Shown in pieces: positions 34,096 through 43,938 of a stretch of 54,371 nt of DNA. Each line of letters opens with the position of its first letter. The stretch's first letter is position 1. The notes below the pieces were generated by a model. It was not told the origin of the DNA. It worked only from the letters and a program-made list of their open reading frames with translations, and did not search any database. Source of the DNA: Nevskia sp. (lineage in GTDB: Bacteria > Pseudomonadota > Gammaproteobacteria > Nevskiales > Nevskiaceae). The position numbers and the translations under genes are program-made. The stretch is taken from contig NZ_JAHFRY010000011.1 in the NCBI RefSeq assembly GCF_023266035.1, forward strand, positions 1 to 54,371, written 5' to 3'.

Positions 34096-34178
34096 ACCGG
34101 TCATCAGCACCACAGGGACTTCATGGTGCTATGCGGCATAGTCTGGCATTCTTGGCGCACCGCAACATAGTGAACCGC

Positions 34179-34670
34179 ATGAACGATATTCGCGTCATCA
34201 AGAAATATCCGAATCGTCGCCTGTACGACACCAATGTCAGTCGCTACATCACGCTCGAGGAAGTGCGGCAACTGGTCTTGAGCAACGTCAAGTTTCGGGT
34301 CGAGGACAAGCGCAGCAAGGACGACATCACGCGCAGCATCTTGCTGCAGGTGATTTCTGAGCAGGAAGAAGGCGGCAATCCGATCTTCAGCTCGGAACTG
34401 CTGACCCACATCATCCGTTTCTACGGCGACCCGATGCAGCCCAGCATCAGCCGCTATCTGGAAATGTCGCTGCAGCTGTTCCTGCAGCAGCAGACCAATT
34501 TCAGCGAGCAATTGAAGGAACTGCTCGGCCAAGCTCAGCAGCCGGTGCAGCGCCTCAAGGATCTGGCAGAGCGCCAGGTGCCGATCTGGCGCACGGTTCG
34601 CAAGGAGTTCCTGAAGAACCTCACGCGCGCCAAGGTCGTCAGGAAAGGTGGCACGGAACTTGGTGATTAA
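34179..34670 (+). CDS. phaR: Polyhydroxyalkanoate synthesis repressor PhaR
   Basis: PhaR binds polyhydroxyalkanoate granules and represses phasin and its own gene. The 163-residue product starts at ATG 34179 (MNDIRVIKKYPNRRLYDT). Upstream in-frame codons exist but add no family sequence. The N-terminal PHB/PHA accumulation regulator DNA-binding domain is RVIKKYPNRRLYDTNVSRYITLEEV, followed by KRSKDDITRSILLQVISEQE and a helical C-terminus. No PHA synthase or phasin gene lies in the window. An AT-rich gap with a probable small RNA gene follows. Confidence 0.93.
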   Translation: MNDIRVIKKYPNRRLYDTNVSRYITLEEVRQLVLSNVKFRVEDKRSKDDITRSILLQVISEQEEGGNPIFSSELLTHIIRFYGDPMQPSISRYLEMSLQLFLQQQTNFSEQLKELLGQAQQPVQRLKDLAERQVPIWRTVRKEFLKNLTRAKVVRKGGTELGD

Positions 34671-34712: not shown

Positions 34713-34730
34713 TTTGACGCATCCGTCAAA
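34713..34730. promoter_or_regulatory. Inverted repeat TTTGACG-N4-CGTCAAA, possible operator
   Basis: A perfect 7-bp dyad with a 4-base centre lies 42 bases after phaR and about 60 bases before the -35 of the putative small RNA. TTGAC-N6-GTCAA has the half-site spacing of CRP-family sites but not the CRP sequence. It might instead be a weak hairpin at the end of phaR transcripts. Confidence 0.35.
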
Positions 34731-34759
34731 TTATTGAACATCATCGTTAACTGTATGAT

Positions 34760-34773
34760 TTAAGTATACTTAA
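34760..34773. promoter_or_regulatory. Perfect 14-bp palindrome TTAAGTATACTTAA
   Basis: This palindrome is centred about 57 bases before the predicted start of the small RNA and 15 bases upstream of its -35 box, inside the most AT-rich stretch of the window. Position and symmetry fit an operator for a dimeric regulator. The identity of the regulator is unknown. Confidence 0.4.
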
Positions 34774-34788
34774 TGATCTTGATCTAAT

Positions 34789-34817
34789 TTGACAAGACGC
34801 AATCAAAAATTTATAGT
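34789..34817 (+). promoter_or_regulatory. Strong sigma-70 promoter of the putative small RNA
   Basis: A perfect -35 TTGACA (34789-34794) and -10 TATAGT (34812-34817, five of six) are separated by exactly 17 bases. Transcription would begin near 34823-34825. No protein-coding gene on this strand lies downstream before the terminator at 34947. Confidence 0.75.
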
Positions 34818-34823
34818 GCACTG

Positions 34824-34947
34824 CAACAACGATCAAGTAACAAGACGGCGCACCCAAATTCAAGTATTACCTGCGCTGTGAATGTCTCCTCCAGAAAGGC
34901 CTAGCGCCTTTCTCGCACCTTGCCCCCTGCTTCAGGGGGCTTTTTTT
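34824..34947 (+). ncRNA. Putative trans-acting small RNA with exposed CUCCUCC
   Basis: A transcript of about 124 nt is bounded by a near-consensus promoter and an intrinsic terminator. It has no open frame of note. Three hairpins can be read directly. Stem 1 is ACGGCGCA (34845-34852) with TGCGCTGT (34872-34879) and a 19-nt loop. Stem 2 is AGAAAGGC (34893-34900) with GCCTTTCT (34906-34913) and loop CTAGC. The terminator stem is GCCCCCTG with CAGGGGGC. Between stems 1 and 2 the sequence TCTCCTCC (34885-34892) is unpaired; CUCCUCC is complementary to Shine-Dalgarno sites, a common seed in repressing small RNAs. It lies between phaR and the convergent pnp gene. I cannot match it to a named family. 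An untranslated leader is excluded because no gene follows on this strand. Confidence 0.65.
34922..34947 (+). terminator. Intrinsic terminator of the putative small RNA
   Basis: GCCCCCTG-CTT-CAGGGGGC (34922-34940) forms an 8-bp GC-rich stem followed by seven T residues (34941-34947), a textbook Rho-independent terminator. Confidence 0.85.
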
Positions 34948-34981
34948 GTCTGTCATTTTCGTGCGGCTAACCTCCGGGCAC

Positions 34982-43676: not shown

Positions 43677-43753
<77 letters not shown>

Positions 43754-43853: not shown

Positions 43854-43938
43854 TGGTGCCGACGGGGAGACTCGAACTCCCACGACTTTCGCCGCTACCA
43901 CCTCAAGGTAGTGCGTCTACCAATTCCGCCACGTCGGC
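43854..43938 (-). tRNA. tRNA-Leu (GAG)
   Basis: The 85-nt gene folds with acceptor GCCGACG/CGTCGGC, A73 and encoded CCA. The anticodon stem is CTACC/GGTAG with loop TTGAGGT (anticodon GAG), followed by a long class II variable arm. It lies between secG and tRNA-fMet, as leuU does in E. coli, and probably shares the secG transcript. Confidence 0.96.

What the first reader, a model, noticed from the sequence alone, without database searches (positions are those of the whole stretch)
34740..34950. Candidate undescribed small RNA with exposed anti-Shine-Dalgarno seed between phaR and pnp
Seen directly: TTGACA-17 bp-TATAGT, then about 124 bases with two 8-bp hairpins and an 8-bp terminator stem plus seven T, and no gene downstream on that strand. 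The unpaired CUCCUCC between hairpins is complementary to ribosome-binding sites. Known: several proteobacterial small RNAs use C/U-rich single-stranded seeds to block translation. Inference: this is a stand-alone riboregulator, perhaps tied to carbon storage because phaR is adjacent.
Basis: partly seen in the sequence, partly recalled or inferred. Interest (0 to 1): 0.78.

Follow-up and report, generated by a model that had tools for sequence, protein, structure and literature searches.

The report
Small RNA linked to carbon storage
A short RNA gene next to a carbon-storage regulator is conserved through an order of bacteria, carries a sequence that could block ribosome binding sites, and has a DNA switch site that is shared with a storage-granule protein gene, so stored carbon may tune protein synthesis through it.

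Summary
In detail: TTGACA-17-TATAGT, about 124 nt, two 8-bp hairpins with largely unpaired CUCCUCC between them, and an 8-bp terminator with seven T. It is not chance. The core (seed, hairpin 2, terminator) is in 80 of 85 genomes of the host's order, very probably Nevskiales. Its stems covary, and the seed is intact in 122 of 126 copies. In 68 of the 77 genomes with both genes, a copy lies just downstream of phaR.

The main new point is a PhaR-operator-like site, TGCACTGCAACA, on the -10/+1. Such a site lies within 140 nt upstream of 95 of 126 copies and abuts the -10 in 91 (controls 14 and 1 of 942 windows). It also lies upstream of 30 of 30 phasin orthologues examined.

Best reading: PhaR represses the sRNA; PHB granules titrate PhaR away; the sRNA then pairs with Shine-Dalgarno sequences. 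It works like RF02278 double-hairpin RNAs (21.8 bits against a cut-off of 50, so not a member), with PhaR control as in rhizobial MmgR. Transcription, PhaR binding and targets are untested.

The parts
34131..34670 (+). phaR, PHB-responsive repressor gene (ORF 34131-34670; by my reading the true start is nearer 34179)
   Evidence: PF07879 95.7 bits and PF05233 53.4 bits; ORF
34156..34167 (+). one-mismatch PhaR-like site CGCACCGCAACA before the likely phaR start
   Evidence: 30 such one-mismatch sites in the window, no more than chance; the relaxed site recurs upstream of phaR in 29 of 40 regions examined, the strict one in 5 of 40 (no control run for the relaxed pattern)
34713..34730 (+). inverted repeat TTTGACG-CATC-CGTCAAA after phaR, possible weak phaR terminator
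   Evidence: read directly; not flagged by the scan
34789..34817 (+). sigma-70 promoter TTGACA-17-TATAGT
   Evidence: the same arrangement in the copies shown
34817..34828 (+). PhaR-operator-like site TGCACTGCAACA on the -10/+1 (11 of 12 positions of TGCRNYGCASMA)
34824..34947 (+). predicted sRNA, about 124 nt
   Evidence: promoter and terminator positions, fold; no transcript data
34845..34879 (+). hairpin 1: stem conserved, sequence variable
   Evidence: 5' segments of 82 distinct boxed copies have mean z -2.85, 65 of 82 below -2
34886..34892 (+). anti-Shine-Dalgarno seed CUCCUCC
   Evidence: 122 of 126 copies intact; unpaired in 37 of 40 folds
34893..34913 (+). hairpin 2, AGAAAGGC/GCCUUUCU
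   Evidence: pairs in 126 of 126 copies with 18 distinct arm pairs (G-U allowed, 5-8 bp); covariation
34914..34921 (+). conserved single-stranded linker CGCACCUU
   Evidence: near-invariant in the 32 copies of A2; unpaired
34922..34947 (+). intrinsic terminator, 8-bp stem and T7
   Evidence: covariation of its stem

Best explanation
The locus encodes a stand-alone small RNA under PhaR control. (1) Without PHB granules, PhaR sits on the operator that overlaps the -10/+1 and keeps RNA polymerase off. (2) When PHB accumulates, PhaR is drawn onto the granules and the sRNA is made at the same time as phasin mRNA, whose promoter has the same kind of operator. (3) The sRNA folds into a sequence-variable 5' hairpin, hairpin 2 and a U-tailed terminator, leaving CUCCUCC single-stranded. 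(4) That seed pairs with Shine-Dalgarno sequences, probably with Hfq, and lowers translation of mRNAs with strong SDs. Phasin, whose SD here is GAGGAG, is one plausible target (a feedback brake); carbon-uptake genes are another, by analogy with NcS27. Shown from sequence: anatomy, conservation, covariation, operator match, sharing with phasin, linkage to phaR. Inferred: a transcript, PhaR binding, induction by PHB, SD pairing, Hfq, targets.
For: Core in 80 of 85 genomes of the order; covariation 10 of 12 pairs, 0 of 500 shuffles reach any of five measures; seed intact in 122 of 126. Copy just downstream of phaR in 68 of the 77 genomes with both. Box upstream of 95 of 126 copies and abutting the -10 in 91 against 14 and 1 of 942 control windows. 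Published PhaR consensus TGCRNYGCASMA, with TGCACCGCAACA among the listed sites, and YGCRNYGCR in S. meliloti. Box within 250 bp of the start of 30 of 30 phasin orthologues against 1 of 288 other windows and 0 of 30 for the reversed pattern. Related RNAs act at ribosome binding sites, and a PhaR-repressed sRNA acting on phasins is known (MmgR).
Against: No RNA data. 31 of 126 copies lack the box, including the phaR-adjacent copies of G024, G035, G043 and G047 (those genomes have a boxed copy elsewhere), and 4 genomes with phaR have no boxed copy. The own genome has no PhaC_N hit and only a sub-cut-off class III-like synthase, so PHB synthesis is not certain here. The phasin match of the own gene is below the Pfam cut-off. 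A second phasin-type family has the box in only 2 of 30. The better pairing with phasin starts (mean -9.0 against -5.5 kcal/mol) is what any good SD would give.
Confidence: 0.66

Rival explanations
1. It is a broad anti-SD growth brake of the NcS27/RF02278 sort; PhaR is only one of several interchangeable inputs and phasin is not a meaningful target.
For: The RNA persists without a box in G065, G068 and G082, where no phaR was detected, under a different promoter shared with G076 and G077. The RF02278-like copies elsewhere in the class have the same seed under other promoters: 27 of the 30 inspected lack a box. Phasin pairing is not specific.
Against: 73 of 80 sRNA-bearing genomes have a boxed copy, and linkage to phaR is order-wide.
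Confidence: 0.17
2. The operator belongs to a regulator other than PhaR that happens to control phasin and the sRNA.
For: PhaR binding was not tested for any Nevskiales protein. The strict box is upstream of phaR itself in only 5 of 40 regions, and 4 genomes with phaR have no boxed copy.
Against: The site matches footprinted and EMSA-tested PhaR sites of two alphaproteobacteria, is at phasin genes in 30 of 30, and is missing in the 3 sRNA-bearing genomes without detected phaR (perhaps one evolutionary event).
Confidence: 0.06
3. It is the 3' UTR and terminator of phaR, perhaps releasing a 3'-UTR-derived sRNA, not an independent gene.
For: Same strand and close behind phaR; no terminator was flagged between phaR and the promoter. 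The own C98 copy does lie in the 3' UTR of a protein gene.
Against: A near-consensus promoter of its own with a fixed box-to-(-10) arrangement in 91 of 126 copies; copies far from phaR with the same promoter, e.g. own C57.
Confidence: 0.06
4. The C/U-rich single strands titrate a protein instead of pairing with mRNAs.
For: Both the seed and the second linker CGCACCUU are near-invariant, which SD pairing alone does not require.
Against: The seed is exactly complementary to SD sequences, and the related S17 acts by pairing, as compensatory mutations showed (PMC11722255 passages).
Confidence: 0.05

Closest known systems
RF02278 Betaproteobacteria toxic sRNA / double-hairpin RNAs (ncS03, ncS05, NcS27, ncS62 of Burkholderia cenocepacia; S17 of Bordetella is described as similar to bdhR1)
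   Same: Unpaired UGUCUCCUCC-like seed, then a hairpin, then a U-tailed terminator; several copies per genome; predicted to cover ribosome binding sites (passages).
   Different: 21.8 bits against a gathering score of 50; different hairpin sequence; an extra 5' hairpin; a PhaR-like box on the -10/+1, found within 130 nt in only 3 of 30 class-wide RF02278 hits inspected; other order.
MmgR (RF00519 suhB / alpha-r8 sRNAs) of Sinorhizobium meliloti
   Same: sRNA with a PhaR (AniA) operator in its promoter, EMSA-tested; lowers phasin levels (passages).
   Different: Unrelated RNA: 11.6 bits against 41, at the terminator only; MmgR is 77 nt; here the gene sits next to phaR and carries an anti-SD seed.
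PhaR regulon (phaP, phaR, phaZ genes)
   Same: Operator sequence and its position over the promoter.
   Different: Classical members are protein genes; here a conserved, phaR-linked sRNA joins them.

Membership tests
RF02278 Betaproteobacteria toxic sRNA | score at or above the Rfam gathering score of 50 | tested here: not met
   21.8 bits, E 0.033; own genome 0 matches at E<=0.001
RF02278 Betaproteobacteria toxic sRNA | CU-rich unpaired seed, hairpin, terminator | tested here: met
RF02278 Betaproteobacteria toxic sRNA | inhibits growth when overexpressed or cloned in E. coli | not testable with these tools
   known for the family from passages; the original paper is not held
RF00519 suhB / MmgR | match to the Rfam model | tested here: not met
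   11.6 bits against 41, terminator only
PhaR regulon | PhaR operator over the promoter | tested here: met
   11 of 12 positions of the published consensus; 95 of 126 copies have a box, 91 abutting the -10; controls 14 and 1 of 942
PhaR regulon | operator shared with phasin | tested here: met
   30 of 30 orthologues examined; the other phasin-type family 2 of 30
PhaR regulon | box absent where phaR is absent | tested here: inconclusive
   3 of 3 sRNA-bearing genomes without detected phaR lack it, but so do 4 of 77 with phaR; Fisher p 4e-4 without correction for relatedness, perhaps one event
PhaR regulon | PhaR binds the site and releases it when PHB is present | not testable with these tools
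   needs EMSA/footprint and mutants

The most novel reading that the evidence does not exclude
A carbon-storage gauge wired to translation. Across Nevskiales, and partly elsewhere, PHB granule formation releases PhaR and switches on one or more anti-SD sRNAs that dampen SD-led translation, so that polymer stores directly brake protein synthesis and growth. The same wiring may reach some RF02278-type RNAs: of 8 RF02278-like copies with an AGATCCC core in the host's family, 7 have a PhaR-like box, one of the 7 in relaxed form only. In the class-wide scan 3 of 30 inspected RF02278 hits had a box, so the wiring is not general there.
Probability: 0.33. Interest if true: 0.8.

Novelty: new variant of a known kind. 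Interest (0 to 1): 0.62.

Why it matters
If true, a bacterium's polymer store reports its fill level to the translation machinery through an RNA. It would give a concrete regulator and signal for one branch of the anti-SD 'toxic' RNAs, whose function in B. cenocepacia was called unknown in 2015 (PMC4603805 passages) and was later tied to carbon-source use and metabolic shutdown for NcS27 (review PMC10987360 passages). The postulated repressor of the Bordetella S17 promoter is still unnamed. It also parallels the PhaR-MmgR circuit of rhizobia with an unrelated RNA, which would make PhaR-gated sRNAs a recurrent design, and it could be a handle for PHB production. My ten searches (open-licence papers only) listed no report of this RNA.

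Tried and rejected
Rfam at gathering score gave nothing at the locus. Sub-threshold hits Atu_C9, anti-hemB, ncS54, isrD, suhB and SNORA77 were set aside as chance or terminator matches. Searches read minus-strand phasin loci in the wrong orientation (0 of 30 and 17 of 30); both were redone, which replaces them. A protein-coding reading was rejected: 12 of 95 boxed transcripts hold a closed ORF of 20 codons or more. A phage or plasmid origin found no support: 6 phage records, none covering more than 23% of the query, and one 30-base plasmid match. An attempt to reach Burkholderiales RF02278 copies through plasmids found nothing; of the two class hits over the cut-off, one has a box (L280) and one has none within 600 nt (L279), so extension to that family is inconclusive. 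Duplex energies at phasin starts fit but are not specific.

Limits of the counts. The box pattern used is looser than the published one at positions 10-11 (any base, then A or C). A1 (40 copies) was picked by requiring a box, so its box count is not independent; the 126 were found by the RNA model without that requirement. A2, from which the model was built, has 32 of those 40. A3 took 97 loci: 8 of the earlier ones and 89 of the 92 fetched; the three copies with a CTCCTTG seed (L424, L426, L428) and most earlier loci were left out, and one copy is in it twice (L344 and L359 overlap). A3 was fitted to the structure. Of 58 operator-like sites in the own genome, looked at 50 site contexts. Whether the phasin orthologue is missing was tested for G065 and G068 only, not G082.

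Full report
WHAT IS THERE. In the phaR-pnp gap the + strand carries TTGACA (34789-34794), a 17-base spacer and TATAGT (34812-34817), then about 124 bases that fold into hairpin 1, hairpin 2 and a terminator with seven T. CUCCUCC (34886-34892) lies between hairpins 1 and 2 and is mostly unpaired (0.86). No gene follows directly on that strand; pnp converges from the other side.

WHERE IT IS. One relative's contig is 808058 bases long, the length of NZ_QICN01000001.1 of Sinimarinibacterium flocculans, which NCBI places in Nevskiales. Two genomes of the window's own genus share contig lengths with Nevskia records: G003:C167 with Nevskia soli JAMFRN010000048.1 (16388) and G008:C22 with Nevskia sp. 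NZ_JAKFUM010000020.1 (39642). So the host is very probably a Nevskia (Gammaproteobacteria).

CONSERVATION. BLAST with 281 bases found mainly the part from GUCUCCUCC to the terminator in 80 of 100 relatives: 80 of the 85 in the order, 0 of the 15 outside it. A covariance model of that core (R1, from 32 copies) finds it in 80 of 85 genomes of the order, in 126 copies, one to five per genome. In a class-wide sample it finds 7 of 185 genomes, 3 of them in the order. The four others score 65.8, 46.8, 42.4 and 32.4 bits, and of these the 42.4-bit one (G121) has a PhaR-like box about 135 bases up. In 98 matches aligned to the model (87 distinct), 98.3% of cells pair, 10 of 12 pairs show changes on both sides, and 0 of 500 shuffles reach any of the five measures; sliding the partners removes the signal (that alignment is fitted to the structure and leaves out some copies, see Tried and rejected). 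Hairpin 2 can pair in all 126 copies with 18 distinct arm pairs. The seed is intact in 122 of 126. Hairpin 1 varies in sequence but keeps a stem: 82 distinct 5' segments have mean z -2.85, 65 below -2. The own genome has three copies.

LINKAGE TO phaR. PhaR (PF07879) is in 81 of 85 genomes. Of 77 with both, 68 have a core 427-726 bases after the end of the PhaR domain match, same strand; 9 do not (some contigs are short, so this may be low).

THE OPERATOR. Directly at the end of the -10 comes TGCACTGCAACA or a variant. Bradyrhizobium PhaR footprints and promoter alignments gave TGCRNYGCASMA (PMC6201568, passages). The window's site differs at position 10, but sites with A there, including TGCACCGCAACA, are in that paper's table. 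S. meliloti PhaR gave a palindrome with core YGCRNYGCR (PMC12542648, passages). Most of the site lies before the predicted start, so conservation of the RNA does not explain it. It is within 140 bases upstream of 95 of 126 copies and abuts the -10 in 91. In 942 windows of 140 bases from the same loci 14 have a box, some of which may be phaR or tandem-copy boxes, and 1 has the abutting arrangement. Against the reading, 31 copies lack it. They include the phaR-adjacent copies of G024, G035, G043 and G047, although each of those genomes has a boxed copy elsewhere. One box-less copy (own C98) is in the 3' UTR of a protein gene that has a PhaR-like palindrome just before it, about 600 bases from the sRNA core.

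THE SAME OPERATOR AT PHASIN. In the own genome TGCRNYGCARCA has 58 sites against 13 for the pattern read backwards. Of the 50 site contexts examined, three had a strong promoter next to the site: the two boxed sRNA copies and a 157-aa gene on C228. That protein matches Phasin_2 only weakly (18.2 bits, cut-off 24.9), but several orthologues pass the cut-off at the same places (G018, G021, G022, G024, G028, G032, G035). All 30 orthologues examined have the box within 250 bases of the start; 0 of 30 have the reversed pattern and 1 of 288 other windows has the box. Most PF09361 top hits belong to another phasin-type family, and 2 of 30 of those have it. Upstream of phaR itself the strict box is in 5 of 40 regions and a relaxed one in 29 of 40, without a control for the relaxed form. 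PhaR is the simplest common regulator.

A NATURAL CONTRAST. Of 80 sRNA-bearing genomes, 73 have a boxed copy, all with phaR. Seven have none: four with phaR (G001, G076, G077, G081) and three without detected phaR (G065, G068, G082). Fisher p is 4e-4, not corrected for relatedness. G065, G068 and G082 share their replacement promoter with G076 and G077, so this may be one event. In G068 and G082 the sRNA follows what I read as dksA; in G075 and G080, which have phaR but no sRNA, phaR follows it. G075 and G080 have no PhaC_N hit. G065, G068 and G082 do have PhaC_N, and G065 and G068 have no hit with the phasin orthologue. An RNA that outlives its PhaR box has work beyond phasin.

PHB CAPACITY. 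The own genome has no PhaC_N hit but has a class III PhaC-like protein at 146 bits, below the curated 365. With phaR and a phasin-like gene present, PHB synthesis is probable, not shown.

MECHANISM. Established for C. necator (PMC9049629, passages): free PhaR represses phaP and phaR, binds PHB, and so leaves the DNA. I infer that the sRNA is derepressed at the same moment and that CUCCUCC pairs with SD sequences. The own phasin SD would pair at -11.5 kcal/mol; over 30 genomes the mean is -9.0 against -5.5 before internal ATGs, which any good SD would give. For RF02278 RNAs, 55-80% of predicted interactions fall at ribosome binding sites; ncS27 overexpression slows growth, and ncS03, ncS05 and ncS27 are 8.0, 6.9 and 4.3 fold up in glucose medium (PMC5688073, passages). 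S17 needs Hfq and represses BP2158 by pairing (PMC11722255, passages). A PhaR-repressed sRNA acting on phasins exists: MmgR (PMC8401924 and PMC12542648, passages).

MEMBERSHIP AND NOVELTY. It is not an RF02278 member (21.8 of 50 bits) nor an RF00519 member. It works like the first in design and like the second in control. Ten literature searches listed nothing that describes this RNA or a PhaR-controlled anti-SD RNA in this order; the library is open-licence only, and I saw search listings and passages, not whole papers. I rate it a new variant of a known kind.

Noticed in passing
L034, L038, L039, L040, L043, L048, L049, L050: A second, RF02278-like sRNA family in the host's family (core GUCUCCUCCAGAUCCC...GGGAUC, about 30-36 bits) with a PhaR-like box upstream in 7 of 8 copies, one of them relaxed.
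   Followed up: partly
L281-L308 (class-wide hits): RF02278 matches below cut-off are common: 82 of 274 class genomes at E<=0.001. Many of the 30 inspected share CUCCUCCAUCCUCC with a strong promoter of the form TTGACA...AATATTAGAA and no PhaR box: perhaps another anti-SD sRNA family with a different regulator.
   Followed up: partly
L404 (G082), L405 (G065), L409 (G068), L402 (G077), L403 (G076): sRNA copies under a replaced promoter with the palindrome-like ACGAAAGTCGT between -35 and -10; phaR is undetected in three of these five genomes.
   Followed up: partly
L218 (own genome C98:9900-13500), sRNA core at C98:11454-11517: A core copy without its own promoter in the 3' UTR of a small protein gene (about 169 aa) that starts just after a PhaR-like palindrome; G015 has a similar copy.
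   Followed up: partly
G030, G020, G031, G024, G035, G043, G059, G040: Tandem sRNA copies within a few hundred bases to about 2 kb, several behind phaR; one of a pair may lack the box.
   Followed up: no
L025, L031, L139, L161 and box-less copies L343, L349, L358, L374: A recurring GGTAAGT stretch between -35 and -10 in many copies, perhaps a second operator.
   Followed up: no
window 43680-43753 and 43857-43938, - strand: Two tRNA genes.
   Followed up: no
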